This document shows, in pieces, positions 20,158 to 39,229 of a stretch of DNA of 40,990 bases. Each line of letters starts with the position of its first letter. The first letter of the stretch is position 1. The stretch comes from Pseudomonadota bacterium (GTDB taxonomy: Bacteria; Pseudomonadota; Gammaproteobacteria; Steroidobacterales; Steroidobacteraceae): assembly GCA_021815925.1 (NCBI GenBank), contig JAKAZL010000005.1, positions 32,751 to 73,740 on the forward strand. The letters run 5' to 3'. The position numbers and the translations under genes are program-made. The notes beneath the pieces are model-generated. The model worked only from the letters and a program-made list of their open reading frames with translations, searched no databases and was not told the DNA's origin.

Positions 20158-20178
20158 AAAAAATCATTGCGCTCAATG
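20158..20178 (-). terminator. Intrinsic terminator of the D-amino-acid peptide operon
   Basis: Read on the minus strand, CATTG-AGCG-CAATG is followed by ATTTTTT. The stem is short (5 bp, with an outer ACCC/GGGT that could wrap the U-tract), but the U-tract is the cleanest in the window. It lies 49 nt after the permease stop and before the next minus-strand gene, so it probably ends the five-gene operon. Confidence 0.55.
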
Positions 20179-20226
20179 GGTTGCGGCGAAACTGGCGTCA
20201 CAGTCCGGGCTCACCGCCGCGCCGGG

Positions 20227-21603
20227 CTACTCGCCAGGCGGTCGCGGAGGCACGAATTTGCGCGCAAGGACGATGAGCACGCCGACCGCGATCCAGGTGA
20301 GGCCGAGACGTTGGGCATTGGCGCTCATGTTGAACATGACGAAGCCGATGATCACGAAGCCGATCACCGGGGCGAGCAGGTGGCGAAGCCAGTCGCGGCT
20401 CGCCTTGCGCCAGAGGAAGTGCCGGACCACCGAGACGTGCACGAACAGGAATCCCGTCATCGCGCCGAAGCTGACGACGGTCAGCAGCAGCTCGAGGCGA
20501 TGCGCGAAGAACAGGATCAGTCCGACCGAGACCGCCGCGACCAGCAGCGTCGCGCGGTCCGGCACCTGTCGCTGCGGATCGACGTGCGCGAACGACCTCG
20601 GCAGCCGCCCGTCGCGCGCCATGCTGAAGAGCAGCCGGGCGATCGCGGCCTGCGAGGTGAGCGCCGAGGCGATCCCGGCGAGGAACACCCCGGCAATGGA
20701 CAGCACGCCCTTCAGCCACGGACCGCCGATGACGCCGGCGATCGTATAGAAGGCGGCGTAACTCGGCTTGCCCGGACCGAACGCGCCCTGGTGCAGGACG
20801 AACAGCGATGCGAGGTAGCTTTGCCCGATGAACAGCACCGCGGTCACCACCAGCGTCAGCAGCGTCGCCCTGCCGACCAGGGTCACGCCGCCGCGAGTCT
20901 CCTCGGCGAGCGTGGAGATCGCATCGAAGCCCAGATAGTTGAGCACACCGATCGAGACCGCACCGAGCACCACCGCCGGAGCGATGCGGCTACCGTCGTA
21001 AAACGGCTGGACGGTCAGGTGCGCCCCGGCGGTGCCCCGGGCAAGCGCCACGAGCGCGCAGACGATGAACAACCCCAACGCCGCGAGCTGCAGCAGCAGC
21101 AACCCCTTGTTGGCCCGGGTGACCCAATCGATGCCGCGCAGGTTGACCACGGTGTTGAAGACCAGCAGGCCAATTGCCCAGACCTCGAGCGGAATCCCCG
21201 GCAGGACCGCGTCGATCGCGACGGCGGCTGCGATGTAGATGAGCGCCGGGGTGAGCAGGTAGTCGAGCACGACGGCCCAGCCGGCGATGAACCCGGCGGT
21301 CTCCCCGAGCGTGCCGCGGGCATAGGCGTATGCGGAGCCGGCGAGCGGGAACTCCCGCGACATCGCCATGTAACTCAGGGCCGTGAAGAACATGGCCACG
21401 AGCCCGATGACATAGACCAGCGGCACCATGCCCGCGCTGGCGTCGTACATGATGCCGAACGAGGGGAACGGCGCCGTCGGCGCGATGAGCACCAGGCCGT
21501 AGACGAGCAGATCCGTCAGGGTGAGCGCACGCTTCAGCTCTTGCCGATAGCCGAAGTCCGCGACGGTGACGGCGGCGGCGCCCTCGCCTTCTGCGCTGTT
21601 CAC
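20227..21603 (-). CDS. APC family amino acid permease
   Basis: A 458-residue protein with about 12 hydrophobic segments. The APC superfamily signature is seen in TM1 (LVYGLVLIAPTAPFPSFG, the unwound glycine-rich helix that binds the amino group), in the LAGSAYAYARGTLGE stretch of TM3, and in NYLGFDAISTLAEETR of TM6. It should import amino acids or small amines across the cytoplasmic membrane with protons. The start is GTG 21601-21603, only 1 nt after the stop of the upstream serine hydrolase gene, so translation is probably coupled. It is the last gene of the operon that begins with the TonB-dependent receptor. A D-amino acid or dipeptide substrate is inferred from context only. Confidence 0.9.
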   Translation of the reverse strand: MNSAEGEGAAAVTVADFGYRQELKRALTLTDLLVYGLVLIAPTAPFPSFGIMYDASAGMVPLVYVIGLVAMFFTALSYMAMSREFPLAGSAYAYARGTLGETAGFIAGWAVVLDYLLTPALIYIAAAVAIDAVLPGIPLEVWAIGLLVFNTVVNLRGIDWVTRANKGLLLLQLAALGLFIVCALVALARGTAGAHLTVQPFYDGSRIAPAVVLGAVSIGVLNYLGFDAISTLAEETRGGVTLVGRATLLTLVVTAVLFIGQSYLASLFVLHQGAFGPGKPSYAAFYTIAGVIGGPWLKGVLSIAGVFLAGIASALTSQAAIARLLFSMARDGRLPRSFAHVDPQRQVPDRATLLVAAVSVGLILFFAHRLELLLTVVSFGAMTGFLFVHVSVVRHFLWRKASRDWLRHLLAPVIGFVIIGFVMFNMSANAQRLGLTWIAVGVLIVLARKFVPPRPPGE

Positions 21604-21604
21604 G

Positions 21605-23203
21605 TCAGTGCCCAGGCACGAAGCGAAGGTCGCGGTAGTCGTAGCTGAAATCGGTCCACGGAAACACCGGCTTCAGGGTGACGCGCACGATACGGCCCTG
21701 GCGGACCTTGAAGGTGACGTAGGCATTGGGAATGCCGCGCTGGCTCCAGTGCGTCTCGAAGACATCGTTGGCCACGTGCTCGAGGGCGCCATCCATGCCC
21801 GGCGTCTCATCGAGACGGATCGACAATCTCCCCGCCTCGGCCGACGTGATGGTCATCTGTCCGTACCAGGGATCCCTATACGTCCCGGCATACGCCCCGA
21901 GGGGCAGGGACAGGTGTCCGTTCGGCCGGTACGCCCGCGGCAGGTGGCGCAGGGCGGACCGCTCCTGGCGCACCTGCCGCTCGTGCTGCTGCATCAGGAC
22001 CGAGACCCAGTCATGGGGCGGACGATCGAGGTAATAGTCGAGCAGCGCGTACACCAGCGCCTCGAGGGTCGCGACATCCTCGGAGTTGATACAGATCGAG
22101 AACGCGACGTGCCGGCCCGGAATGAAATACAGGGCCGACAGCGCGCCCAGGACCCCGCCGTCGTGCTCAATGACCTTGTGCCCGTCATCGACCTCCACGA
22201 ACCAGCCGAGTGCGTAGTCCTGTAGCGTCGGATTGGGAAGCGTGCGCGACGGCGGTCCGAATGCATCCGCCGGCACGACCATGACCGGACTCCACAGCGC
22301 CTGGACCGACCGGGCGCTGAGCAGCCGCCGACCGTCGCTCAGCCGTCCGCCGTTCTCCCACATCGTCATCCACTTCGCCATGTCCCGGGCGCTGGCGTTA
22401 ATGCCCCCGGCGGGAGCCGCTGCCGGTGAATCCAGCCAGTGATGCAGGACGCTCAGCGGCCCGACGCCGCGCAGCGGACCGTCGATGCGCGCGTGCAGCG
22501 CGACCCCGTTCGGCGCATGCGGATCATATTGTGTCGTCGCGTCGGACATGCCGAGCGGATCGAGCAGGCGCTCGCGCACGAACGTGCTCCAGCGCTGACC
22601 GGACACCGCGTGCACCAGCGAGCCGGCCGCCATGTACAGCACGTTGTCGTAGGCGAATACCTCGCGAAAGCCCGTTCGGGGCTTCAGGTAGCGCAGCGCG
22701 TGCACGACGTTCGCCCGGCTGCGCGTCGAGGCCGGCACGACCAGCAGATCGCCCTCGCCGAGCCCGAGCCCGCTGCGGTGCGTGAGCAGGTCCCGGACTG
22801 TCATGTGCGCCGTCGCGTACGGATCGTACATGCGAAACCCCGGCAGGTGTCGCTCGATGCGGCTGCTCCACTTGAGCTTGTGCTCCTGGACCAGGATGGC
22901 GAGCGCCGCAGACGTGAAGGCCTTGGTCTCCGAGCCGATCGGGAAGAGCGTGCGGGCGGTAACCGGTGCGCGCGTCTGGATGCTGCGCACGCCGTAACCT
23001 TTCGCGACGACCGTCCGGCCGTCGACCACGATGGCGAGCGAGAGCCCCGGTGTGCCGAAGGCACGCATCGCCGTGTGCACCAGCCGGTCCAGATCCGGCG
23101 GCACCGTCGCGCGCGTCATCGCCATCGCCGGCGCCGCGGCCGCCAGGGCGAGAGCGGCCGTGGCGGCCGGCCCGAAACGAAGACGCCGCCTGCCGCCCAC
23201 CAT
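21605..23203 (-). CDS. Secreted beta-lactamase-family serine hydrolase (class C type)
   Basis: A 532-residue exported penicillin-binding-protein-fold hydrolase. A signal peptide covers residues 1-28. The active-site motifs are S91-x-x-K94 (GSETK), Y185-D-N187 (the YxN element) and H347-D-G (in place of KTG), as in class C beta-lactamase-like D-aminopeptidases, esterases and DD-peptidases. The C-terminal 150 residues form a separate beta-rich domain (LPLGAYAGTYRDPWYGQ) like the DUF3471 domain found behind many such enzymes. Within the operon it most likely cleaves D-amino-acid-containing peptides in the periplasm. It is the second of two tandem hydrolases, 6 nt after the first, and the two differ strongly in sequence. 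Confidence 0.9.
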   Translation of the reverse strand: MVGGRRRLRFGPAATAALALAAAAPAMAMTRATVPPDLDRLVHTAMRAFGTPGLSLAIVVDGRTVVAKGYGVRSIQTRAPVTARTLFPIGSETKAFTSAALAILVQEHKLKWSSRIERHLPGFRMYDPYATAHMTVRDLLTHRSGLGLGEGDLLVVPASTRSRANVVHALRYLKPRTGFREVFAYDNVLYMAAGSLVHAVSGQRWSTFVRERLLDPLGMSDATTQYDPHAPNGVALHARIDGPLRGVGPLSVLHHWLDSPAAAPAGGINASARDMAKWMTMWENGGRLSDGRRLLSARSVQALWSPVMVVPADAFGPPSRTLPNPTLQDYALGWFVEVDDGHKVIEHDGGVLGALSALYFIPGRHVAFSICINSEDVATLEALVYALLDYYLDRPPHDWVSVLMQQHERQVRQERSALRHLPRAYRPNGHLSLPLGAYAGTYRDPWYGQMTITSAEAGRLSIRLDETPGMDGALEHVANDVFETHWSQRGIPNAYVTFKVRQGRIVRVTLKPVFPWTDFSYDYRDLRFVPGH

Positions 23204-23209
23204 GGGTGC

Positions 23210-25222
23210 TCAGTACCGCAGGCTGAAGTTGACCAGGTGGAACGCGAAGATCAGCCACAGGCCATACAGGCCGCACAGCCCGAGCAGCAGCTCTCCGCCA
23301 CGCACCAGCCAGCCGCCCGGACCGCGCCAGAGACGCAGCGCCGCCTCGGCCACGATCGCGAGCGCAGCGGCAATACCGAGCACGGACAGCGCGTAGGCAC
23401 CGAGCATCGGTCCGTTGAGGTTCCAGTGGTTGCCGAGCAGCAGCATGACGACGCCGGTCCAGCCGCCCAGGACGCCGAGCAGCACGAGCGCACCGAGCCG
23501 CGAGGCGAGACGCAGCCGCCGCTGCAACGCCGGGAGCACCAGTACCGTGCCGAAGTGGCGCCGCGCGATCCATCCGCCGAGCCAGATCGCCAGCGTCAGC
23601 AGCAGCACCAGGCAGAATCCACCGAGCATCACCTTCAGATCCGCGAGCTTCTTCCAGCCGTGGACGCGCTGGAAGACGAACACCGGCGGATAGGCATCCG
23701 TGACCCAGTAGCGGATGTGTCCGGCCCGGTCGGTCACGAACTTCAGATGCGACTGGCCGCCGACTGCGCGGTACGACAGCGGGCCGACCTCCCGCCACTT
23801 CATGGGTGCGCCGCTCAGGTGCGTCAGCATGCCGACTTCGATGCGGCCGTCCGGCAAGGCGGTGACGGGCGTCTCAGTGATCGCGCTCAACATGCTCAGC
23901 GCCGAGGCGATCCGCCGCGACGAGGTGTACCAGCCGGCGACGCGCGCCGCATCCTTCTGTGCCGCGGCGCGGGGAACCGCAGGCTCCTTCGGCGGCTGGT
24001 AGGGGAAGTAGCGGTTCAGGAAGGCGTGGAAGATCGCCACCCGCACGTTGTCCGCCGCGCCGTCGTTGCCGACGCTGTTCAGCGCGATGAAGAAGCCCAC
24101 GTCCTTGCCGGGCAGCAGGTGCAGGTCGGCGTGGAACCAGTTGGTGTCGCCAGCGTGCCCGATGATGGTAAGGCCGTTGCGGTTCTCCTGGTAGAACCCG
24201 AGATCGAATCCGTTCATGCCCGGAGCCATGCGCGACTGGGGCGAGTGCATCAGGGCGAGCGTCTGGGGATCGAGGATGGGCGCGCCGCCGTCCGAGCCGT
24301 CACCGAGCTGCGCGATCATGAAGCGCGCCATGTCGGTGGCCGTCGCCGCGACGGACCCGGCGGGCCACACTTCGATGTACTCGAAATGCTTGGCCTTGCC
24401 CGAGGCAGTGTCGTACCCCTGCGAGACGTCCGCCATCAGCGCCGGCGGCGGGGGCTGGCGGAAGGTGATGTGATTCATGCCGAGCGGCTGGAAGATGTGC
24501 TGCTCGATGTACCGGTCGAAGGGCTCGCCCGAGAGCCGCTGCACGATGTAGCCGGCGAGCGTCGCACCGTAGTTGGAATACGCGACGATCTCGCCCGGCG
24601 GGAAGATCCGCGCCGGCCGGTGCCGGATGAGATAGGTGCGCAGCGGTATCAGCTGGTCCGCTGACTTCATCATCAGCTGCGAGATGGTGTCCTCGAACCC
24701 CGGGGTGTGGGTCATGAGGTCGCGCATGGTGATGGGCCGGCCGAACTTCGGCGGAATCCGGAAATCGAGGTAGCGGTTGACGTTCTGGTTCAGGTCGAGC
24801 CGTCCCGCCTGCACCTGCTGCATCACCGCCGTCCAGGTGAACAGCTTGGAGATGGAGCCGATACGGAACAGGGTCCGGTTCGGGATGACGGGCGCGCGGG
24901 TCTTGACGTTCGAGAAGCCGTAGCCGTGAACGAACAACAGCTTGCCGCCGGAGACGACCGCTACGACGGCGCCGGCGATGTTGGCGCGGCGGATCGCATA
25001 GGGGACGATGCCGTCGAAGAAGGCAGCGGCATCCGCCTGCGTGAGCGGGTGACCCGGCGCGGTGGCACTCGCCGGCGCGGCCGGGGCCGCGACGACAGGT
25101 TGCGCCGCGCCGGCGCGAGGAGCGGTGGGGTTCGCAGCGCCCATCGCCGAGCCGGCCAAAAGGAGGCAGGCCAGCGCGAGCGGCGCCCCGCGGCCGCCGC
25201 GGACACGGAAGGACAGGGTCAT
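23210..25222 (-). CDS. Membrane-anchored beta-lactamase-family serine hydrolase
   Basis: A 670-residue protein. After a signal peptide (1-29) and an Ala/Pro linker, the catalytic domain shows S123-x-x-K126 (GSISK), Y215-S-N217 and H356-A-G, the full class C/DD-peptidase set. From about residue 540 there are four hydrophobic segments (starting VMLGGFCLVLLLTLAIWL and ending LYGLWLIFAFHLVNF), so the enzyme is probably held in the inner membrane with its active site in the periplasm. Some homologues with this tail are annotated as flp or peptidase of unknown substrate. Its ATG overlaps the epimerase stop (ATGA), giving a tight operon order: epimerase, this hydrolase, second hydrolase, permease. 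Confidence 0.9.
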   Translation of the reverse strand: MTLSFRVRGGRGAPLALACLLLAGSAMGAANPTAPRAGAAQPVVAAPAAPASATAPGHPLTQADAAAFFDGIVPYAIRRANIAGAVVAVVSGGKLLFVHGYGFSNVKTRAPVIPNRTLFRIGSISKLFTWTAVMQQVQAGRLDLNQNVNRYLDFRIPPKFGRPITMRDLMTHTPGFEDTISQLMMKSADQLIPLRTYLIRHRPARIFPPGEIVAYSNYGATLAGYIVQRLSGEPFDRYIEQHIFQPLGMNHITFRQPPPPALMADVSQGYDTASGKAKHFEYIEVWPAGSVAATATDMARFMIAQLGDGSDGGAPILDPQTLALMHSPQSRMAPGMNGFDLGFYQENRNGLTIIGHAGDTNWFHADLHLLPGKDVGFFIALNSVGNDGAADNVRVAIFHAFLNRYFPYQPPKEPAVPRAAAQKDAARVAGWYTSSRRIASALSMLSAITETPVTALPDGRIEVGMLTHLSGAPMKWREVGPLSYRAVGGQSHLKFVTDRAGHIRYWVTDAYPPVFVFQRVHGWKKLADLKVMLGGFCLVLLLTLAIWLGGWIARRHFGTVLVLPALQRRLRLASRLGALVLLGVLGGWTGVVMLLLGNHWNLNGPMLGAYALSVLGIAAALAIVAEAALRLWRGPGGWLVRGGELLLGLCGLYGLWLIFAFHLVNFSLRY

Positions 25223-26229
25223 GCGGTCACCTTTTTGGATTGGCTCGGGAGGGGGAAGCCCCAGTCGGGCGGACAGGCAACAGTGCCGTCACGGTACACG
25301 GCCGGGGGCTCCCGGTCGTGGGTCAGAAACGTCGGCGCATCGAGATCCACGATCTCACACAGCGCCCCGACCACACAGGCCGGCGCAATGGCGAGCGCCG
25401 TGCCCTGCATGCAGCCCACCATGGGCCGCATCCCCAGGCGGCGGACCTCACGCGCCATGTCCAGGGCCTCGGTCAGGCCGCCGCATTTGTCGAGCTTGAT
25501 GTTGATGACCTGATAGATCCCCTGCAGCCGGGCGATATCGGGCAGCGACTGGACGCTCTCGTCCGCGGCCAGCGGCAGCGGTGAGTCGAGCCCGCGCAGA
25601 TCCTCGTCGCGCCCAACCGGAAGCGGCTGCTCGATGAGCTGCACGTCGAGCTCGACCAGCACCGGCAGCAGCGCCTCGAGGCTGCGGCGCGTCAGTCCCT
25701 GGTTCGCGTCGATTCCGATCCACGCATCCGGTTTGGCGGCCCGCACCGCCCGCAGGCGCGCCGCATCGTCCTGGCCGGTCAGCTTGATCTTCAGCCGCCG
25801 TGCCGTCGTGTAGGAGGCGGCCGTCGCGGCCATCTCCTGCGGGCTGCCCGCGCCCACCGTATAGGTCGTCTCGAGCGGCCGCAGCGTCTCCAGACCCGCG
25901 GACCGGAACGCCGGCACACCGGTCAGCTTCGCCTCGAGATCCCACAGCGCGCAGTCGAGCGCACAACGCGCCCCACCCGGGGGCAGCAGCGCGCGCAGCC
26001 CCTGGCGCGTCGGGCCGGATTCGATTGCCGGGCGCACTTGCTCGATCTGTTCCGTCATGCTCGAGACCGTCTCGCCGTGATAGTACACGCCGGCCGCCTC
26101 GCCGCGACCGCGGACGCCTTCGCGCGACAGCTCCACGACGATGACCTCGCAGTCCGTGAAGGTGTAGCCGGAGATCCGGAACGGGCTGCGGGTCGGCCAG
26201 CGCTCGCCGGTGATCTTCATCGTCAGCAT
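25219..26229 (-). CDS. Dipeptide epimerase (L-Ala-D/L-Glu epimerase-like, enolase superfamily)
   Basis: A 336-residue enolase-superfamily enzyme. The catalytic K147-x-K149 (LKIKL) and the second lysine in NIKLDKCGG (K245/K248) flank the metal ligands D174 (IDANQG), E200 (IEQPLP) and D223 (ADES). This is the muconate lactonising/dipeptide epimerase subgroup, which includes YcjG and YkfB, cytoplasmic enzymes that convert L-Ala-D-Glu from murein into L-Ala-L-Glu. The C-terminal DLDAP segment also fits, being near the substrate carboxylate or amino-group site of dipeptide epimerases. The start is ATG 26227-26229 (or 26220). It sits 14 nt after the TonB receptor stop and overlaps the next gene, so it belongs to the peptide-uptake operon. 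Confidence 0.9.
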   Translation of the reverse strand: MLTMKITGERWPTRSPFRISGYTFTDCEVIVVELSREGVRGRGEAAGVYYHGETVSSMTEQIEQVRPAIESGPTRQGLRALLPPGGARCALDCALWDLEAKLTGVPAFRSAGLETLRPLETTYTVGAGSPQEMAATAASYTTARRLKIKLTGQDDAARLRAVRAAKPDAWIGIDANQGLTRRSLEALLPVLVELDVQLIEQPLPVGRDEDLRGLDSPLPLAADESVQSLPDIARLQGIYQVINIKLDKCGGLTEALDMAREVRRLGMRPMVGCMQGTALAIAPACVVGALCEIVDLDAPTFLTHDREPPAVYRDGTVACPPDWGFPLPSQSKKVTA

Positions 26230-26243
26230 GGCGTCCGTCCTGC

Positions 26244-28394
26244 TCAGAGCTTACCGGTGATGGTCAGGCCGATCATCCGCGGCGGGGTCACATCGCCCAC
26301 CGGCGCGGCCTGCGTGATCGCAGCCCCGCCCTGGTCGATCTCGATGATCGAGCGCCGGTTGGTCAGGTTGCGGGCATAGATCTCGAGCGTCCATCGACCG
26401 CGCGTCACACCCGTCTGCAGGTCGAACTCGCTGTCGCTCGGCAGGTTGGCCTGGCCGAGCGCGGGATTGAATCCCGATTCCCGGCGACCCGTGTAACGCC
26501 AGTCGGCGCCGAAGGTTGCCGACAGGTCCCCCCGCCGGAAGTACGTGTAGTTTGCTGACGCCGAGCCGCTCCAGCGCGGGATGTACGGCAGCTGCGCCCC
26601 GGCGCGCGCGCCGACCAGAATCGGGTCGGTGCTCGAGGTGAGCTGCGCATCCGTATAGGCCCCGCCCACCCGAACGGTCAGTCGCTCGAGCGGTATCCAC
26701 GCCGCCTGCCATTCGAAGCCCTTGCTGCGGGCGGTGCCACCGTTGCCGTTGACACCGAAGTTGTCGACGACCGTCTCGAGCTGAATGCCCTTCCAGTCGA
26801 TGTCGAACAGGTCCGCATCGATCGACAGCCGACCCTCGAGCAGCCGCGACTTCACCCCGAGCTCGTAGTTGACCAGCGTGTCGGAACGGAACGTCGCCGG
26901 CACGTTGGGCGGGGGGTTCGGGGGCAGCACGTTCGGGCCGCCGGGCTGGTACCCCTTCGCCACGCGCGCGTAGAGCATGGTATTGGCAGTGGGGTGCCAG
27001 TGCGGTGCCACCGAGTAGGTGAACACCCCCTCCGAGGAGCGGCCCTGTGCCGAGGCCAGGCCGAACTCGAGGGCATCCTGGCGGTTGTGCGCCCAGCGCC
27101 CCCCCACGCTCAGATCGAACGCCTTGGAGAAGTGATAAGTGACGTTGCCGAAGCCGGCCACCTCGAGGTAACTGGAGTTCAGCTGCACGAATCCCAGCGG
27201 GGCGCTGGTCAGCGTCGGGATGAGCGCTTGGTGGAGGTTCGCGGTCTCGTGCGTGTAGAAGAACCCGGCCAGCCAGTCGAGCCGATGCTCGCCGACCGAG
27301 GCCAGGCGCAGCTCCTCGGTGAGCTTGTGCTCGCCGAGCGCGGCGCGCTCGAGCGTGCCGAACAACGCCGTGGCATCCTCGATCTGGTCACCCGAGTACG
27401 TCCCGTAGCTCGTCGCCGAGGTGAGCGCGCCCCAACCGAGGTTCCAGTCGACCGTGGCGTTGTACAGCCGGTTGCGCACCGTCGAGGTCTCCGCGACCGC
27501 CCGACCCTGGGCCAGAGGACCGTAGAGCGGCGTCAGGCTGATCCGCATGCCCGAAGCGGTGGCGGTGGAGGGAACCGTCGTCAGATCGACGCCGTTGGTC
27601 CCGCCGAGATTCATATCCTGCAGGTACGCCGTCAGGCGAACCGTCACCGCATCCGGATGGCCCCAGAGCAGCGAGGCGCGTCCGCCCTTCTCGCCTGAGC
27701 CGTTGACGTGGCGCGCGTTGCGGGTGGGATCGTTGATGAACCCGGCGTGCTTCCAGCGGTAGCCATCGACGCGCAGCGCCAGGTCCGAACTCAGAGGGAG
27801 GTTGACCATGCCGCGGGTGGACCAGCCGAACCCGCCGCCGGCGGTCTCGTCCATCCCCGCCTGGACCTCGTCGTCGAACGCCTTGGGATTGGGCGGATTG
27901 GTGACGAAGCGGATCAGTCCGCCGAGGGTATTGGCGCCATAGAGCGTGCCCTGCGGTCCGCGCAGCACCTCGATCCGCTTCATGTCGAAGGTATCGATGT
28001 TCGGCGTCATGATCAGGCCGTCGGCGAGCGCGCTCGAGGAGCCGTACGGACTCTCATCAAGGTAGGTGCCGATCGTGGCGCCGGTGCCCTCGGTGTTGAT
28101 GCCGCGCAGCACCAGGGTGGTGTGCGCCGGGTCGGAGGCCACCATGACCATGCCGGGAACGGTCTGCACGTAGTCGGCGAAATTGACCTCGTGCATGCGC
28201 GCGAGCTGCGCCCCGCTGACGACCGTGATGCTCATGGGCACATTGCGCAGCGGCTCCGGGCGCTTGGTGGCCGTCACCACGATGGGTGCCAGACGAACGG
28301 CCGATGCCGTGTCCGCCCGCGCCACCGCACCGCCCAGGCCGATTCCGCACGCCAACAGGCCGGCCATCCCGTCTCGCCAACTCATCGTTCTCAT
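26244..28394 (-). CDS. TonB-dependent outer membrane receptor
   Basis: A 716-residue outer membrane protein: signal peptide to about residue 27, a plug domain starting at IVVTATKRPEPLRNVPMS (about 35-150) with the RGINTEGTGATIG and RGPQGTLYG elements, and a 22-strand barrel to the C-terminus, which ends ITGKL rather than in the more usual aromatic residue. It would bring a ligand across the outer membrane using TonB energy. I chose the ATG at 28394 because CGGGGAG lies 6 nt upstream; another ATG at 28400 sits directly on that Shine-Dalgarno. As first gene of the operon with a dipeptide epimerase and two periplasmic hydrolases, a peptide ligand is more likely than iron. A 7-bp palindrome lies upstream. 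Confidence 0.93.
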   Translation of the reverse strand: MRTMSWRDGMAGLLACGIGLGGAVARADTASAVRLAPIVVTATKRPEPLRNVPMSITVVSGAQLARMHEVNFADYVQTVPGMVMVASDPAHTTLVLRGINTEGTGATIGTYLDESPYGSSSALADGLIMTPNIDTFDMKRIEVLRGPQGTLYGANTLGGLIRFVTNPPNPKAFDDEVQAGMDETAGGGFGWSTRGMVNLPLSSDLALRVDGYRWKHAGFINDPTRNARHVNGSGEKGGRASLLWGHPDAVTVRLTAYLQDMNLGGTNGVDLTTVPSTATASGMRISLTPLYGPLAQGRAVAETSTVRNRLYNATVDWNLGWGALTSATSYGTYSGDQIEDATALFGTLERAALGEHKLTEELRLASVGEHRLDWLAGFFYTHETANLHQALIPTLTSAPLGFVQLNSSYLEVAGFGNVTYHFSKAFDLSVGGRWAHNRQDALEFGLASAQGRSSEGVFTYSVAPHWHPTANTMLYARVAKGYQPGGPNVLPPNPPPNVPATFRSDTLVNYELGVKSRLLEGRLSIDADLFDIDWKGIQLETVVDNFGVNGNGGTARSKGFEWQAAWIPLERLTVRVGGAYTDAQLTSSTDPILVGARAGAQLPYIPRWSGSASANYTYFRRGDLSATFGADWRYTGRRESGFNPALGQANLPSDSEFDLQTGVTRGRWTLEIYARNLTNRRSIIEIDQGGAAITQAAPVGDVTPPRMIGLTITGKL

Positions 28395-28427
28395 GATCAT
28401 CTCCCCGAGGAGAGCCCCCCGGCGCGA

Positions 28428-28456
28428 ATGGTAGATAGATCGCATAGAAAATACAA
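28428..28456 (-). promoter_or_regulatory. Candidate promoter of the receptor operon
   Basis: On the minus strand TTGTAT (28451-28456) and TACCAT (28428-28433) are 17 bp apart, 34 nt before the receptor ATG. Matches to consensus are 3/6 and 4/6, so it is weak. The -35 lies inside the 28452-28471 palindrome, so a protein bound there would block it. Confidence 0.35.
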
Positions 28457-28471
28457 ATTGATATATTTGTA
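28452..28471. promoter_or_regulatory. Candidate operator, perfect 7-bp palindrome TACAAAT-N6-ATTTGTA
   Basis: The 20-bp site has perfect 7-bp arms around TGATAT and is strikingly AT-rich compared with its surroundings. It is placed between the divergent TonB receptor gene (58 nt upstream of its ATG) and the RpiR-type regulator gene (125 nt upstream of its ATG), where a regulator of both would bind. Assignment to the RpiR protein is inferred from location. Confidence 0.55.
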
Positions 28472-28595
28472 CCATTGGGCATCCCCGCGCGCCGGCGGCG
28501 CACGCCGCAGGACGGCACGCCGATCAGGGGCTATGCTGCTCGTCGGGCGTGAGGGCGAGCGCGGCTTGAACCACGGGCTGGGGGTTACTGAGGTC

Positions 28596-29447
28596 ATGCT
28601 TTCTTTAGAGACCGTCATCAAGAAGAGCTGGAAGCAGCTCACGATCTCCGAGCGCCGGCTCGCCACCTTCGTGCTGCAACACCTCGAGGAGCTGCCGTTC
28701 GAGACGGCCGCCTCGATCGCCGCGCGCGTTGGGGTCAGCCCCATGACCGTGGGGCGATTCATCCGCAAGATCGGCTACCGGGACCTGCGGGGGATCAAGA
28801 CCGCGCTGCGGACCGGCTCGGCCGAGAGCGGCCTGCTCTCGCGCCAGATCACCCGCAAGTTGTTCGACAACGCGCCGCTTGAAAGCAAGGTCAAGGCGCT
28901 GAGCGGCGTGCACCGCCTGCCCTCGTGCGCGGAGTGGCCCGGCATCGTCGCACTGCTCTCGAGCGCCCGCCACGTGCATGTGGCCAGCTTCCAACTGGGC
29001 CGCTTCATCGGTCTCGGGTTCGCCTCCGCCCTGCAGACCATCCGCCCCCACTGTCACTTCGCCGACGGCAGCGACGGGGGCTATATCGACGCACTGCTGG
29101 ATTCGGATTCGAAGTCCTGCATCGTGCTGATCGACTTCAGGCGCTACTCCAGCCACTTCCGCCTGCTCGCCGAGGAGGCGGCGGCCCGCAAGATTCCTGT
29201 GGTCATCATCACAGACGTCTACTGTCACTGGGCGCGCGAGATCACCGATCACGTGCTGCTGCTCGAGACCGATTTCGACGCATCCTGGGAGCGCCTGGGC
29301 ATCGCCCAGTCCCTGCTCGAACTGCTACTGGTCGACGTCGCGAAGCAATGCAAGGGCCGCGCGCAGCGCTACGAGGCCATCCATCAGCTGCGCGAGAAGT
29401 TCGTCGGCTTCGAAAAGGTCAATGAGAGTGATGCCGAGGAGGCCTGA
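28596..29447 (+). CDS. RpiR/MurR family transcriptional regulator (HTH plus SIS domain)
   Basis: A 283-residue regulator. Residues 1-77 form the RpiR helix-turn-helix domain (TISERRLATFVLQHLEELPF, then AASIAARVGVSPMTVGRFIRK) and residues 110-250 a SIS-type sugar isomerase-like domain (VASFQLGRFIGLGFASALQ; CIVLIDFRRYSSHFRLLAEE). Family members sense phosphosugars; MurR senses MurNAc-6-phosphate. I chose ATG 28596, which starts the product just before the first helix; the frame runs far upstream, antisense to the receptor gene, but that part is not like any regulator. It is divergent from the receptor operon and followed by the D-amino-acid dehydrogenase gene. A serine or threonine pair typical for phosphate binding is not obvious in the SIS part, so its ligand may not be a phosphosugar. 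Confidence 0.9.
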   Translation: MLSLETVIKKSWKQLTISERRLATFVLQHLEELPFETAASIAARVGVSPMTVGRFIRKIGYRDLRGIKTALRTGSAESGLLSRQITRKLFDNAPLESKVKALSGVHRLPSCAEWPGIVALLSSARHVHVASFQLGRFIGLGFASALQTIRPHCHFADGSDGGYIDALLDSDSKSCIVLIDFRRYSSHFRLLAEEAAARKIPVVIITDVYCHWAREITDHVLLLETDFDASWERLGIAQSLLELLLVDVAKQCKGRAQRYEAIHQLREKFVGFEKVNESDAEEA

Positions 29448-29564
29448 GCTGGCGTCGAGGCGCGCGGCCGAGACCGCGGCGCCCCGCGCTGCGCGCTCGG
29501 GACGCCAATCGTGCACGCCGGGCTCGACACACATGACACCGAATCCCTCCTGGGAGTCCCTCCC

Positions 29565-30707
29565 GTGAGCGTTGAGACCGCGGACATCGTCATCGTGGGC
29601 GCGGGCATTGCCGGGACATCGGCGGCTGCCAAGCTGGCACGCACGCATCGGGTCGTGTTGCTGGAAGGCGAAGACGCCGTCGGCTATCACTCGACGGGCC
29701 GCTCCGCGGCCCTCTTTTCGGAGACCTACGGCAACGTGCCGGTGCGCGCCTTGTCACGGGCGAGCCGCCCGTTCCTCGCCGGACCGCCCGCGGGCTTCAG
29801 CGCCTCCCCGCTCATCCAACCGCGCGGCGTACTGCACGCGGCGGGCGCGGGACAGGCATCGACGGTGGATGCGTTTCTCCGCCAGAACGACGTGCGCGAG
29901 AAGGTCCGTCGCGTCGGCCCCGAGGAAGCCCTCGCCCTCTGTCCTGCCCTGCGGCCGCAAAGTGCAGCCGCCGGAGGTCTGTACGAGGCCGAAGCGGCCG
30001 ACATCGATGTTCACGGATTGCACCAGGGCTTCCTCAGGCAGTTCCGCGAGCACAACGGCCGCCTGGTCAGGAGCGCGAAAGTGACGGCGCTGCGGCACGA
30101 CGGCTCCGCGTGGCAGGTGACAAGCACCGCGGGCGACTTCCAGGCTCGCATCCTCGTGAACGCGGCCGGCGCCTGGGCCGACCCCGTTGCCCAGCTGGCC
30201 GGTCTTGCCCCGCTCGGCATTCAGCCGTACCGCCGGACGATCGCGCTCGCGGAAGTCGCCGGTCCGGCGATCGAGCGGCAATGGCCCATGGCGCTCGACG
30301 TGCACGAATCGTATTACTTCAAGCCGGATGCCGGCCTGCTGCTGCTGTCACCTGCCGATGAGACGCCGGTCGACCCCTGTGATGCCCAGCCGCTCGACCT
30401 GGACGTCGCGATTGCGGTGGACCGGGTCGAGGCGGCCACCCGGTGGACGATCCAGAGAATCCGCCGCGCCTGGGCCGGGCTGCGCTCCTTCGCTCCCGAT
30501 CGCACGCTGGTCATCGGCTTCGACCCCGAGGCGCCGGGATTCTTCTGGCTTGCCGGCCAGGGCGGGTACGGCATCCAGACCTCGCCGGCCGCTGCCATGC
30601 TCGCGGCAGCCCTGGTCTGCAACGAGGCGTTGCCGCCCGAACTCGCAGGATTCGATCCGGGCTGGGTATCCCCCGCGAGATTCGCAGGACGCCCGGCGGC
30701 AACCTGA
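29565..30707 (+). CDS. FAD-dependent D-amino acid dehydrogenase, DauA (D-arginine dehydrogenase) family
   Basis: A 380-residue DAO-type flavoprotein. The FAD-binding VGAGIAG is at 11-17, YHSTGRSAA at 41-49, LVNAAGAW at 198-204, and PLGIQPYRR, HESYYFKPDAG, AWAGLRSF and FFWLAGQGGYGIQTS follow in the order known from Pseudomonas D-arginine dehydrogenase. From memory of that enzyme, the substrate-carboxylate arginines (R222, R305) and Y53 and Y249 are kept here as R223/R224, R307, Y55 and Y250/Y251, while H48 and E87, which contact the basic side chain, are replaced (L50, V89). It would deaminate a D-amino acid to a 2-oxo acid and pass electrons to the respiratory chain, but probably not prefer D-Arg. 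The GTG at 29565 has GGGAG 8 nt upstream; an ATG at 29511 is possible. Confidence 0.87.
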   Translation: MSVETADIVIVGAGIAGTSAAAKLARTHRVVLLEGEDAVGYHSTGRSAALFSETYGNVPVRALSRASRPFLAGPPAGFSASPLIQPRGVLHAAGAGQASTVDAFLRQNDVREKVRRVGPEEALALCPALRPQSAAAGGLYEAEAADIDVHGLHQGFLRQFREHNGRLVRSAKVTALRHDGSAWQVTSTAGDFQARILVNAAGAWADPVAQLAGLAPLGIQPYRRTIALAEVAGPAIERQWPMALDVHESYYFKPDAGLLLLSPADETPVDPCDAQPLDLDVAIAVDRVEAATRWTIQRIRRAWAGLRSFAPDRTLVIGFDPEAPGFFWLAGQGGYGIQTSPAAAMLAAALVCNEALPPELAGFDPGWVSPARFAGRPAAT

Positions 30708-36568: not shown

Positions 36569-36937
36569 GCGCGGAATTCTACGACCGTGAGGCGATGGCT
36601 GCACTTTGCGTCGGTGTCCGGGCGGTGAGGCAGTCCCCTGAACCGCCCGGCCGTCCCAGCGCTCCGGCGCCCAGAGGTGCCCGGGTATCGAGCTCGAGCC
36701 CGATCATGCGCACAATGTGTTGCAATCGCCTCGTCCGAATGAATCTGCAGGCCCGCGCGCGGCCAGTGGCCGATTCGGGATTACAATCCAGACGTATATC
36801 GGCCGGACCGGGCAACCGAACAGATCTGGTGCATCAAGGGATCCCGGCGCGCTCGCGGTGGTTCGAGGGCCCACCGAGTGCATGCTGGGGATTTACCCGA
36901 CGGTCTCGTCACGATTCGTTCCGGGGAGAAGAACAGG
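36569..36937. other. Intergenic region between divergent arfB and acylase genes
   Basis: These 369 bases hold the start regions of two divergent genes. On the plus strand TTACAAT at 36781-36787 resembles a -10 element but lacks a convincing -35 at 17 bp. GGGGAG at 36923-36928 and AGG at 36935 are the ribosome binding site region of the acylase gene. No small gene was recognised. Confidence 0.4.
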
Positions 36938-39229
36938 ATGACAATCCAGAATCGCCGCGGTCTGACCGGTTTGGCCTTTGCGCTAGCCGCCGCCGCTCTG
37001 ACCCCGGGGCTGTCCGCCGCCACCGCCGCCACCGTCGCGCCAGCGCCGACACGCACCGCAGCGCCGTGGGAGATTCCGATCGTCCCGCACAGCCGCGAAT
37101 ACTCTCGCCTCGAACGCGAGGCGCAGCAGGTCACGATCACCCGGGACAATTGGGGCATTGCGCACGTCCACGGCAGGACCAACGCCGATGCGGTGTTCGG
37201 AATGGTTTATGCGCAGTGCCAGGACGATTTCAGCCGCGTCAGGCGCAACTACCTGCTGGCGCTCGGCTGGAACGCGCAGGCGATGGGCCGCTCGAGGGTC
37301 TGGCAGGATCTGCGCGAGCAGTTGTTCATCAACCCTGCAGTCCTGAAACAGGACTACCTGAAGAGCCCCGCCTGGCTGCGACGGCTCATGGACGCCTGGG
37401 CCGACGGTATGAACTGGTATCTGGCCACTCACCCGCCAGCCCAAGACGAGGTCATCAAGCGCTACCTGCCGTGGATGGCGCTGTCGTTCACCGAGGGCAG
37501 CATCGGGGGCGACATCACCCGCGTGAAGCTATCTGCCCTGGCGGCATTCTACGGCGGCAGCGCAGCCACTGTGACCGCGCTCGCAGCAAGGCATCCGCCG
37601 AGCTGGCACGAACAGCTCGGTTCCAACGGCATCGCAATCGCACCGAAACTGACTGTCGATCACCACGCCCTGCTGCTGATCAACCCGCACGTCACGTTCA
37701 ATTTCCGCGACGAGCTGCAGATGTCGAGCGATCAGGGTCTTGATGCATATGGCGCTGCGACCTGGGGTCAGTTCTTCATCTACCAGGGATTCAACAAGCA
37801 CATCGGCTGGATGCACACCTCGACGGGCGTCGATGCGGTCGATCAGTTCGCCGAAGTCATCCTCAAGAAGCGGGGGCGATATTTCTACCGCTTCGGCAAG
37901 GCGCTACTGCCCGTGAAGACGCGAACGATCACGGTCCGCTACCGCAGCAGGGACGGTGCCATGCGCTCGCGCACGTTCACGGCATATTTTACGCTGCACG
38001 GTCCCATCGTTGCGCAGGCACATGGCAAATGGATCGCCGAGGCGCTGATGAACCGGCCGATTCCCGCGCTCGAGCAGAGCTGGCTGCGCACCACGGCGTC
38101 GGATCTCGCCGACTACATGAACATTGCGCGCCTGAAGGCGAACTCCTCCAACAACACGATTTTTGCCGACGATAAGGGGGAGATCGCATTCCTGGTGCCA
38201 CAGTTCATCCCCAAGCGGAACAACCGCTTCGACTACATCCGGCCCGTCGATGGCAGCAACCCAGCCACGGCCTGGCAGGGTCTGACGCCGCTGAGAGACA
38301 TGCCGAACGTGATCAACCCGCCAAACGGGTGGGTCTTCAACACCAATGACTGGCCGTGGACGGCCGCCGGAAAATACAGCCCGAGGGCGGCTGATTATCC
38401 GCAGTACATGGACACGTTTGGCCCAAATCCGCGCAGCGAGCATGCGCTAAGGATGCTGCGCGGCGCCCGGAACTTCACTTCCGCGAAGCTTATTACCGAT
38501 GCCTTCGATTCGTACCTGCCGGCGTTCGCGCGGCTGATCCCGATCCTGGTGAAGGACTACGACAATCTGCCCGGGAACGACCCGCTGAAGCGCAAGCTGG
38601 CCGGCCCCATCGGCGTGTTGCGGTCATGGGACTACCGCTGGGGCATCGCCTCGATCCCGACGTCTATCGCCGTATTCTGGGGCGACACGTTGTGGGACGA
38701 GCTCGATGCGAAGGCCCGCGCCAGCGGCATCGACGCGCACGAGACGAACATGCGCACGTACGATTACATCGCCGAGCGGGCAACGCCGAAGGTCCGCTTG
38801 GAAGCGCTCGTCACTGCCGTCGATCGGCTGCAGAAGGATTTCGGCAACTGGGGTGTTCCCTGGGGCGAGATCAACCGCTACCAGCGCCTCGATGATTCGA
38901 TTCATCCGCACTTCAGCGATACCAGGCCGAGCATTGCGATCCCTTTCACCTCCTCCCGCTGGGGATCGCTGGCCTCCTTCGGAGCACATCGCTGGCCGGG
39001 AACCCGCCGGTATTACGGCAACGACGGCAACAGCTTCGTCGCTGTGGTCGATTTCGGGCCCCGGGTGAGCGCCCGTGCGATCCACGTCGGCGGTACCAGC
39101 GGCAACCCCCGATCAACGCATTTCACGGACCAGGCATCGCGCTACGCCACTGGGGATCTGCGCACCGTGTACTTCTGGCCGGATCAGCTGAAGCGCCACA
39201 CGGTGCGCGTGTACCACCCGGGCAATTAG
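36938..39229 (+). CDS. Secreted penicillin acylase family Ntn-hydrolase (acylase)
   Basis: A 763-residue precursor of the penicillin amidase family. A signal peptide covers about residues 1-31, the alpha-subunit region includes VTITRDNWGIAHVHGRTNADAVFGMVY split by family-typical residues, and the autoprocessing site is G228-S229, where S229 (LGSNGIAIAP) becomes the N-terminal nucleophile of the beta subunit. LLINPHVTFNF and SSNNTIFADDKGEIAFL are further conserved pieces. Family members hydrolyse amide bonds with acyl chains: penicillins, cyclic lipopeptides or acyl-homoserine lactones. Length and the GSN site with no following W-A-V are closer to aculeacin/AHL acylase-like than to penicillin G acylase, but the substrate is not provable. 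Periplasmic. No partner genes adjoin. Confidence 0.9.
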   Translation: MTIQNRRGLTGLAFALAAAALTPGLSAATAATVAPAPTRTAAPWEIPIVPHSREYSRLEREAQQVTITRDNWGIAHVHGRTNADAVFGMVYAQCQDDFSRVRRNYLLALGWNAQAMGRSRVWQDLREQLFINPAVLKQDYLKSPAWLRRLMDAWADGMNWYLATHPPAQDEVIKRYLPWMALSFTEGSIGGDITRVKLSALAAFYGGSAATVTALAARHPPSWHEQLGSNGIAIAPKLTVDHHALLLINPHVTFNFRDELQMSSDQGLDAYGAATWGQFFIYQGFNKHIGWMHTSTGVDAVDQFAEVILKKRGRYFYRFGKALLPVKTRTITVRYRSRDGAMRSRTFTAYFTLHGPIVAQAHGKWIAEALMNRPIPALEQSWLRTTASDLADYMNIARLKANSSNNTIFADDKGEIAFLVPQFIPKRNNRFDYIRPVDGSNPATAWQGLTPLRDMPNVINPPNGWVFNTNDWPWTAAGKYSPRAADYPQYMDTFGPNPRSEHALRMLRGARNFTSAKLITDAFDSYLPAFARLIPILVKDYDNLPGNDPLKRKLAGPIGVLRSWDYRWGIASIPTSIAVFWGDTLWDELDAKARASGIDAHETNMRTYDYIAERATPKVRLEALVTAVDRLQKDFGNWGVPWGEINRYQRLDDSIHPHFSDTRPSIAIPFTSSRWGSLASFGAHRWPGTRRYYGNDGNSFVAVVDFGPRVSARAIHVGGTSGNPRSTHFTDQASRYATGDLRTVYFWPDQLKRHTVRVYHPGN

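What the first reader, a model, noticed from the sequence alone, without database searches (positions are those of the whole stretch)
20158..30707. Complete candidate system for scavenging D-amino-acid (murein-like) peptides
Seven genes form a logical chain. A TonB receptor (outer membrane entry), two different periplasmic serine hydrolases of the DD-peptidase/D-aminopeptidase fold, an APC permease (inner membrane entry), an L-Ala-D/L-Glu-type dipeptide epimerase and a DauA-family D-amino acid dehydrogenase are under a MurR-like divergent regulator. Seen directly: order, 4-nt overlap, 1-14 nt gaps, and a terminator after the permease. Known: the enzyme families. Inferred: the substrate. There are no MurNAc or anhydro-sugar genes and no Opp-type transporter, so this would be a route for free stem peptides or other D-residue peptides that differs from the E. 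coli mpl/ampG recycling pathway.
Basis: partly seen in the sequence, partly recalled or inferred. Interest (0 to 1): 0.8.

Follow-up and report, generated by a model that had tools for sequence, protein, structure and literature searches.

The report
Gene cluster for eating D-peptides
Seven neighbouring bacterial genes look like one branch of a widespread, apparently undescribed system for taking up and breaking down peptides that contain mirror-image (D-) amino acids; the signs point away from the cell-wall peptides first proposed and towards other D-residue peptides.

Summary
The seven genes, their order, the 4-nt overlap and the 1-, 6- and 14-nt gaps are as described. The terminator is not established, and the regulator is RpiR/SIS-type, not specifically MurR. 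The core (TonB receptor, S12 hydrolase with four C-terminal membrane helices, enolase-superfamily epimerase) is conserved well beyond the window: across the host family, in a Micropepsaceae MAG and on plasmids of Sphingomonadales. Relatives mostly add a DgcN-like acetyltransferase, another permease, and often an M19 dipeptidase. The window belongs to a supported six-sequence branch whose clusters lack DgcN; three of the six, window included, have a DauA-like dehydrogenase in view. The murein reading is weakened: the epimerase lacks the basic loop residues seen in E. coli L-Ala-D/L-Glu epimerase and most DgcA-type enzymes (R21 is G, K/R24 is F, R50 is Y), the dehydrogenase lacks DauA's H48 and E87, and the host has Mpl, AmpG-model and LdcA-family genes elsewhere. 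Best reading: uptake and catabolism of D-residue peptides with neutral or hydrophobic side chains, the epimerase acting on dipeptides and the dehydrogenase on freed D-amino acids. Substrate and activities are inferred. New variant of a known kind.

The parts
20227..21603 (-). APC-superfamily amino-acid permease (458 aa, 12 hydrophobic segments)
   Evidence: PF13520 107 bits and PF00324 102 bits; hydropathy; no NCBIfam cut-off reached
21605..23203 (-). Hydrolase A: S12 (beta-lactamase fold) serine hydrolase with DUF3471, no C-terminal membrane helix; N-terminus looks like a signal peptide by eye only
   Evidence: PF00144 216 bits, PF11954 74 bits; best solved chain IS11 7spn (119 bits), then among others ClbP (73 bits) and alkaline D-peptidase 4y7p (63 bits); one SxxK, at residue 91; no segment over the hydropathy threshold
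23210..25222 (-). Hydrolase B: S12 serine hydrolase with four C-terminal hydrophobic segments (membrane helices); start overlaps the epimerase stop by 4 nt
   Evidence: PF00144 212 bits; an SxxK at residue 123 among four; four C-terminal segments here and in 25 of 25 relatives of at least 300 bits beside G21-type epimerases; best solved chain 2qmi (105 bits), alkaline D-peptidase 4y7p ninth (72 bits)
25219..26229 (-). Enolase-superfamily epimerase, G21-type (LADLE/DgcA superfamily branch); no signal peptide by eye
   Evidence: PF13378 and PF02746; DgcA model 370 bits, below its 400 cut-off; AF2 model pLDDT 83.7, best PDB matches 4gfi and 1jpd; loop signature
26244..28394 (-). TonB-dependent receptor (ORF continues to 28475; start at 28394 or 28400 chosen by eye)
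   Evidence: PF00593 113 bits, PF07715 65 bits
28395..28595 (.). Intergenic region between receptor and regulator; presumed divergent promoter and operator
   Evidence: sequence; 14-nt imperfect inverted repeat 28427-28440/28463-28476, 79% complementary, no more than suggestive; no sigma-70-like site found by the scan
28596..29447 (+). RpiR-family regulator (HTH_6 + SIS), SapR-like
   Evidence: a 73% identical relative in G145 beside the same cluster (L046); distant relatives beside DgcN in L120 and L126
29565..30707 (+). FAD-dependent D-amino-acid dehydrogenase, DauA-like
   Evidence: PF01266 177 bits; DauA 3nyc 298 bits; catalytic positions kept, H48 and E87 changed

Best explanation
The locus is a DgcN-less branch of a conserved D-peptide utilisation cluster. 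Proposed path: the TonB receptor takes a D-residue oligopeptide into the periplasm; hydrolase A (soluble) and hydrolase B (anchored by four membrane helices, catalytic domain in the periplasm) cut it D-stereospecifically; the APC permease, and perhaps the POT transporters encoded elsewhere, bring amino acids and dipeptides in; the cytoplasmic G21-type epimerase converts the D-residue of a dipeptide (or N-acyl amino acid) to L, so that ordinary peptidases finish the job; the DauA-like dehydrogenase oxidises D-amino acids already set free; the RpiR regulator controls both arms. The side chains handled are more likely neutral or hydrophobic than D-Glu, so murein stem peptides are not the preferred substrate. 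Shown: gene content, conservation of the core, loop and pocket substitutions, absence of a DgcN match. Inferred: localisation, catalytic activities, direction of flow, substrate, regulation.
For: Neighbourhood: of 37 loci with a G21-type epimerase, within 9 kb 25 have a HydB relative of at least 300 bits, 25 a TBDR, 25 DgcN, 22 a YkvI-like permease, 23 an XRE-cupin regulator and 14 HydA; HydB lies within 400 nt on the same strand in 22. Of 42 R21-type loci: 0, 1, 22, 0, 0 and 1. Within the host family alone HydB is beside 22 of 30 G21-type against 0 of 7 R21-type loci (p 6e-4). Named replicons: Sphingobium yanoikuyae pKN1 and Croceicoccus marinus pCME4A9I carry XRE | serine hydrolase - dipeptide epimerase - (peptide MFS in the second) - TonB receptor - DUF1611 - hypothetical - serine hydrolase; Novosphingobium EMRT-2 has the same up to the hypothetical gene, then HydA matches in two frames. 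D-chemistry: DgcN-like gene (NF041892, 439 bits, cut-off 480), M19 dipeptidase and POT in relatives; alkaline D-peptidase among the solved relatives of both hydrolases. Side chain: the two kinds are defined by position 21 (R or G); independently of that, position 24 is K/R in 35 of 44 and F in 33 of 38, position 50 is R in 34 of 44 and Y in 38 of 38, and D295 and D297 are kept in all 82; the position-21 letter needs only 3 changes on the tree. Branch: DgcN is missing from 6 of 27 genomes, and these are the genomes behind the window's branch; the seventh genome (G145) has DgcN beside an R21-type paralogue. Dehydrogenase: H48->L and E87->V with Y53, R222, Y249, R305, G332 kept.
Against: No activity, expression or ligand data. 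R18, three residues before G21, is present in 30 of 38 G21-type rows and might bind an acidic side chain instead; the Bacteroides epimerase 3iji/3ijq, solved with L-Ala-D-Glu, lacks R21 too (it keeps R24 in my alignment). The loop is among the less certain parts of the model (pLDDT means 64 and 74). That R21/R24 bind Glu is recalled; papers opened for it gave nothing. S12 hydrolases include esterases. 12 of 37 G21-type loci show no HydB of 300 bits (some on short contigs). The dehydrogenase is not a constant part: it is near the epimerase in 2 of 86 loci, and six other dehydrogenase loci that I fetched show no epimerase. The RpiR relative was not found in G201, the genome of the near relative L040. 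No M19 dipeptidase was found in the own genome. The contrast groups differ in taxonomy, the loci were picked by hand, and the profiles were built from the window or from the loci.
Confidence: 0.55

Rival explanations
1. Murein stem-peptide scavenging: the epimerase converts L-Ala-D-Glu, the hydrolases are DD-peptidases or D-aminopeptidases acting on muropeptide stems.
For: Fold and nearest solved relatives are dipeptide-epimerase-like (4gfi 249 bits, E. coli 1jpd 220 bits); DxD motif kept; the AmpH DD-peptidase model matches both hydrolases weakly (66 and 78 bits, cut-off 266).
Against: Basic loop residues missing in the whole group; LADLE model 256 bits against a 343 cut-off; host has matches to Mpl (693 bits), TIGR00901 (458 bits; AmpG by recall) and the S66/LdcA family elsewhere; no NlpC/P60-type or amidase domain among the seven genes.
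Confidence: 0.15
2. Degradation of non-ribosomal peptides (antibiotics or toxins) as resistance or as food: hydrolase B is a membrane-anchored D-stereospecific peptidase and the rest recycles the pieces.
For: Hydrolase B has a C-terminal membrane bundle; ClbP, with a membrane domain, is in the same fold (start of abstract of PMC9889268); the mlr microcystin pathway uses a periplasmic S12 MlrB, a POT-type MlrD and an M81 MlrC (PMC12474180 passages), and L044 has POT and M81 genes near its cluster. L129, a dehydrogenase locus without epimerase in view, also has POT and M81.
Against: No MlrA-, MlrC- or MlrD-type gene among the seven; comparison with the resistance peptidases BogQ and TriF (names recalled) was not possible; a permease plus catabolic enzymes suit feeding better than resistance alone.
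Confidence: 0.15
3. A DgcA-like route: the epimerase is an N-acyl-D-amino-acid racemase whose acetyltransferase is supplied by another gene, and the cluster serves free D-amino acids rather than peptides.
For: The closest NCBI model is DgcA; 25 of 37 G21-type loci have a DgcN-like neighbour.
Against: No DgcN match in the own genome or in five others of the branch; DUF1611 only 19.2 bits against a 25-bit cut-off in the own genome; TonB receptor and two peptidases point to peptides.
Confidence: 0.1

Closest known systems
[quoted passage not shown] numbers from PMC11747546 passages)
   Same: Epimerase is in the DgcA/LADLE branch of the superfamily; 25 of 37 G21-type loci carry a DgcN-like gene; an RpiR relative sits beside DgcN in L120 and L126
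   Different: The four G21-type enzymes scored give 349-372 bits, under the DgcA cut-off of 400; the six R21-type enzymes scored give 405-508. Loop residues differ; the window's genome has no DgcN match; TonB receptor and S12 hydrolases are added
L-Ala-D/L-Glu epimerase (E. coli YcjG, B. subtilis YkfB)
   Same: Fold, catalytic lysines, metal ligands, DxD motif
   Different: R21, R24 and R50 of the E. coli enzyme are G, F and Y (window numbering); score below the family cut-off; other gene neighbourhood
mlr microcystin-degradation cluster (MlrA-D)
   Same: Periplasmic S12 hydrolase, inner-membrane transporter and cytoplasmic processing of a D-residue peptide as a scheme (PMC12474180 passages)
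   Different: No MlrA, MlrC or MlrD type in the window; epimerase, dehydrogenase and TonB receptor instead; relation of hydrolase A to MlrB not tested
DauA, FAD-dependent D-arginine dehydrogenase (P. aeruginosa)
   Same: 161 of 366 aligned residues identical; Y53, R222, Y249, R305, G332 kept
   Different: H48->L and E87->V, so D-Arg specificity is unlikely (roles of these residues recalled)
ClbP and D-stereospecific peptidases
   Same: S12 catalytic domain followed by C-terminal membrane helices in hydrolase B; alkaline D-peptidase among its solved relatives
   Different: Four helices here, three in ClbP (start of abstract of PMC9889268); ClbP matches hydrolase A but is not among the 60 chains shown, of 136 matched, for hydrolase B

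Membership tests
L-Ala-D/L-Glu epimerase (LADLE) | Curated model NF011708 cut-off (343 bits) | tested here: not met
   256 bits
L-Ala-D/L-Glu epimerase (LADLE) | Basic 20s-loop residues as in E. coli (R21, R24) | tested here: not met
   G21, F24; their role in binding Glu is recalled, and 3iji lacks R21 too
L-Ala-D/L-Glu epimerase (LADLE) | Catalytic lysines K-x-K and K, metal ligands D, E, D, DxD motif | tested here: met
   K147/K149, D174, E200, D223, K245, D295/D297
L-Ala-D/L-Glu epimerase (LADLE) | Epimerises L-Ala-D-Glu | not testable with these tools
   needs an enzyme assay
DgcA N-acetyl-D-Glu racemase | Curated model NF042940 cut-off (400 bits) | tested here: not met
   370 bits
DgcA N-acetyl-D-Glu racemase | Partner acetyltransferase DgcN in the genome | tested here: not met
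   no match in G000, 93.8% complete; DUF1611 below cut-off
DauA-type D-amino-acid dehydrogenase | DAO fold and catalytic/carboxylate-binding residues | tested here: met
   (roles recalled)
DauA-type D-amino-acid dehydrogenase | D-Arg side-chain contacts H48, E87 (roles recalled) | tested here: not met
   L and V at these positions
MurR (MurNAc-6-P regulator) | RpiR HTH plus SIS domain | tested here: met
   PF01418 32.9 bits, PF01380 30.7 bits, both over cut-off
MurR (MurNAc-6-P regulator) | MurR-specific match or MurNAc genes beside it | tested here: not met
   only a general MurR/RpiR model at 30 of 355 bits; no MurNAc gene family among the seven
mlr microcystin cluster | mlrA, mlrC and mlrD beside mlrB | tested here: not met
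   no CAAX-protease-, M81- or POT-family match among the seven genes
D-stereospecific peptidase (DRP/ClbP-like) | S12 domain, SxxK, C-terminal membrane helices | tested here: met
   hydropathy only, the AF2 model failed (pLDDT 41)
D-stereospecific peptidase (DRP/ClbP-like) | Cleaves at D-residues | not testable with these tools
   needs an enzyme assay
Cluster type described here | Four-helix HydB, G21-type epimerase and TBDR together | tested here: met
   window; relatives

The most novel reading that the evidence does not exclude
The G21-type epimerases are an undescribed functional class that inverts neutral or hydrophobic D-residues. With DgcN-like partners they form a general N-acetylation/racemisation route for non-acidic D-amino acids, coupled to TonB-dependent uptake and membrane-anchored D-peptidases; in the window's branch the acetylation step is gone and the enzyme works directly on dipeptides, with a re-tuned D-amino-acid dehydrogenase taking the free residues.
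Probability: 0.3. Interest if true: 0.75.

Novelty: new variant of a known kind. Interest (0 to 1): 0.55.

Why it matters
D-amino acids are counted among recalcitrant organic matter (PMC10845958 passages), and D-residue peptides include non-ribosomal antibiotics. A gene set found also on plasmids of cultured Sphingomonadales, with a three-residue epimerase signature, would let one predict who can use such peptides and gives a direct test of how the enolase superfamily changes side-chain specificity.

Tried and rejected
Terminator after the permease: not established. Operator for the regulator: repeats of the window and L046 intergenic regions were listed; I saw no shared site by eye. Fold of hydrolase B: AF2 with 3 rows gave pLDDT 41, not used. 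The host's own PG recycling as the role: set aside, because matches to Mpl, TIGR00901 and S66 lie elsewhere. DgcN missed only through assembly gaps: unlikely, since six genomes of one branch lack it, though they are draft genomes or MAGs and the completeness of three (G200-G202) is not told. VGCM/VGNM as a mark of DgcN dependence: rejected, R21-type enzymes beside DgcN have C. Specificity residues of LADLE from papers: nothing found. Not in print: the ten searches listed no paper whose title or abstract start describes this cluster; this covers the held open-licence library only, and the primary DgcN/DgcA paper that I looked for is not held.

Full report
WHAT IS THERE. The window lies in a 2.73-Mb, 93.8% complete assembly of 143 contigs. 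All seven genes are present with the stated order and spacing, and Pfam supports each family: AA_permease_2; Beta-lactamase + DUF3471; Beta-lactamase; MR_MLE_N/C; Plug + TonB barrel; HTH_6 + SIS; DAO. The regulator's best curated model is SapR, far under its cut-off (135 of 500 bits).

CONSERVATION. The epimerase has a match at E <= 0.001 in 107 of 200 genomes of the family, weak superfamily matches included. I took 40 of these places with up to 10 kb on either side, 6 loci from GTDB contigs and 40 places from a phylum search that matched 127 of 398 genomes at E <= 1e-40, and scanned all six frames with profiles of the cluster genes. L040 repeats TBDR-EPI-HydB-HydA-APC; its contig ends at the receptor. 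L046 (G145, same genus) has the whole set: DAO and RpiR divergent from HydA-TBDR-EPI-HydB-APC. L044, a Rhizomicrobium (Micropepsaceae) MAG, has DAO, TBDR, EPI, HydB, HydA and POT, with an XRE-cupin match instead of RpiR. In many other loci the core is joined by DUF1611/DgcN, M19 dipeptidase, POT, an S15 peptidase and an XRE-cupin regulator, and by a 366-aa membrane protein without Pfam match, which I call YkvI-like from recall.

TWO KINDS OF EPIMERASE. In an alignment of 84 rows (331 columns), 44 have Arg at window position 21, 38 Gly, one Asn (L077) and one Thr (the Bacteroides PDB row). I define the two kinds by this letter. It needs 3 changes on the tree, the least possible, against a mean of 29.3 in shuffles (0 of 200 as low). 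R21-type rows, including E. coli 1jpd and Agrobacterium 4gfi, form one side of a branch (SH-aLRT 87); 37 of the 38 G21-type rows form another (85), L088 standing apart. The tree is a quick one with SH-aLRT only, and 3iji is a long branch. Independent of the definition: position 24 is K/R in 35 of 44 R21-type and F in 33 of 38 G21-type rows; position 50 is R in 34 of 44 and Y in 38 of 38; D295 and D297 are kept in all 82; R18 is kept in 30 of 38 G21-type rows. Of ten enzymes scored against NCBI's DgcA model (cut-off 400), the six R21-type give 405-508 (L081 435, L094 441, L104 508, L113 421, L083 409, L120 405; the E. coli-like L113 scores higher, 610, on the LADLE model) and the four G21-type give 349-372 (window, L046, L044, L066).

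THE NEIGHBOURHOOD FOLLOWS THE KIND. Counts are in the For line. HydB of at least 300 bits: 25 of 37 against 0 of 42 (Fisher 7e-12; the loci are related, so this is descriptive). At weaker scores three R21-type loci (L080, L081, L110) show a HydB-profile match of 69-98 bits. Inside the host family alone: 22 of 30 against 0 of 7 (p 6e-4). All 25 HydB proteins have four hydrophobic C-terminal segments, all 14 HydA none. On plasmids, tblastn found 218 records with an epimerase match; I opened six. Sphingobium yanoikuyae pKN1 and Croceicoccus marinus pCME4A9I have the full core with DUF1611 and a second serine hydrolase; Novosphingobium EMRT-2 has the core with DUF1611, its HydA matches falling in two frames. 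Novosphingobium RL4 has epimerase, HydB, POT and XRE, Sphingobium V4 TBDR, a weak S12 match and epimerase, and Bradyrhizobium p155_2 only epimerase + DUF1611. All six epimerases have G21; F24 is kept in four.

THE WINDOW'S BRANCH. The six-row set window, L046, L041, L042, L043, L044 is supported (99). DgcN was sought in 27 whole genomes: 21 have a match; the 6 without are G000, G166, G119, G200, G201 and G202, which are genomes of this branch (L041 and L040 lie in the same record set, G201; L042 is a contig of the length of G119:C76; L045, a near copy of L041, corresponds to G166:C98). G145, the seventh, has DgcN beside an R21-type paralogue (L081), not at the G21 locus. This fits an enzyme that no longer needs N-acetylation, i.e. 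one acting on dipeptides, but other losses are not excluded.

DEHYDROGENASE AND REGULATOR. The DAO protein aligns with DauA with 161 of 366 identities; H48 and E87 are L and V in the window, V and W in L046, L and S in L044, while Y53, R222, Y249 (F in the PDB variant used), R305 and G332 agree. The roles of these residues are recalled. A DAO relative (E <= 1e-50) exists in 48 of 200 family genomes. Near the epimerase it was seen in 2 of 86 loci, L044 and L046, and six other DAO loci that I fetched (L128-L133) show no epimerase, so the gene is an addition, not part of the core. One of them, L129 (53% identical), lies with a TonB receptor, an amidohydrolase, XRE-cupin, POT, M81 and a YkvI-like permease. 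RpiR relatives were found in 6 of 16 genomes; apart from the own genome only G145 has a close one (73% identical). Two distant ones sit beside DgcN (L120, L126).

HOST CONTEXT. The own genome has an Mpl-model match of 693 bits, a TIGR00901 match of 458 bits (named 2A0125 by the tool; AmpG is my recall), one S66 match and two full-length POT matches, but no M19. So murein recycling seems provided for elsewhere, and import of dipeptides is plausible. An Opp-type transporter was not sought genome-wide.

STRUCTURE. The epimerase model (6 rows, pLDDT 83.7) matches 4gfi (TM 0.90) and 1jpd (0.87) best. Residues 11-30 have mean pLDDT 64 and 74; residues 301-310 are lower (53). Coordinates could not be inspected, so the pocket is judged from sequence. 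Hydrolase B could not be modelled.

LITERATURE. Passages of PMC12363236 describe dgcN as the key gene of a racemisation pathway for acidic D-amino acids and their amides; PMC10845958 passages name DgcN-DgcA as a D-Glu route; PMC11747546 passages give the EC numbers; PMC5808125 passages summarise LADLE; PMC12474180 passages describe MlrB, C and D; PMC12516957 passages only mention D-stereospecific peptidases; PMC8142540 passages gave nothing on specificity, and PMC3605383 held none of the terms. PMC9889268 was seen as a listing with the start of its abstract.

VERDICT. A real operon with a conserved core; D-peptide scavenging is the best general reading, murein is not favoured. The most original points are the G21 signature, its tight link to four-helix S12 hydrolases, and the DgcN-less branch.

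Noticed in passing
L046 and L081 (G145): One genome holds both epimerase kinds: a G21-type in the full cluster and an R21-type directly after an above-cut-off DgcN.
   Followed up: yes
L120 8629-9531; L126 8796-9698: RpiR proteins distantly related to the window regulator lie directly beside DgcN genes, hinting at a regulator type shared with DgcN loci.
   Followed up: partly
L066 10640-11740 and relatives (22 of 37 G21-type loci): A conserved membrane protein (366 aa in L066) without Pfam match, probably a permease, where the window has APC.
   Followed up: partly
L041, L042 (and near copies L045, L047, L048): A sub-branch in which a FecR-type gene precedes the receptor and hydrolase B is replaced by a 527-aa protein that matches the HydB profile only weakly (61-66 bits).
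   Followed up: no
window 36878-39229 (+): Penicillin-amidase-family hydrolase about 6 kb from the cluster; might also act on acylated peptides.
   Followed up: no
L044 5539-7008; L129 3757-5262: M81 (MlrC-type) metallopeptidase genes near the D-peptide genes.
   Followed up: no
L083, L084, L085: A third epimerase type (IARG/IARA loop with GVDYHG) in large-genome relatives, with none of the profiled cluster genes near it.
   Followed up: no
L135 16305-18430 (Novosphingobium EMRT-2 plasmid): HydA matches in two overlapping frames, so this copy may be broken; no gene is listed there in the table.
   Followed up: no
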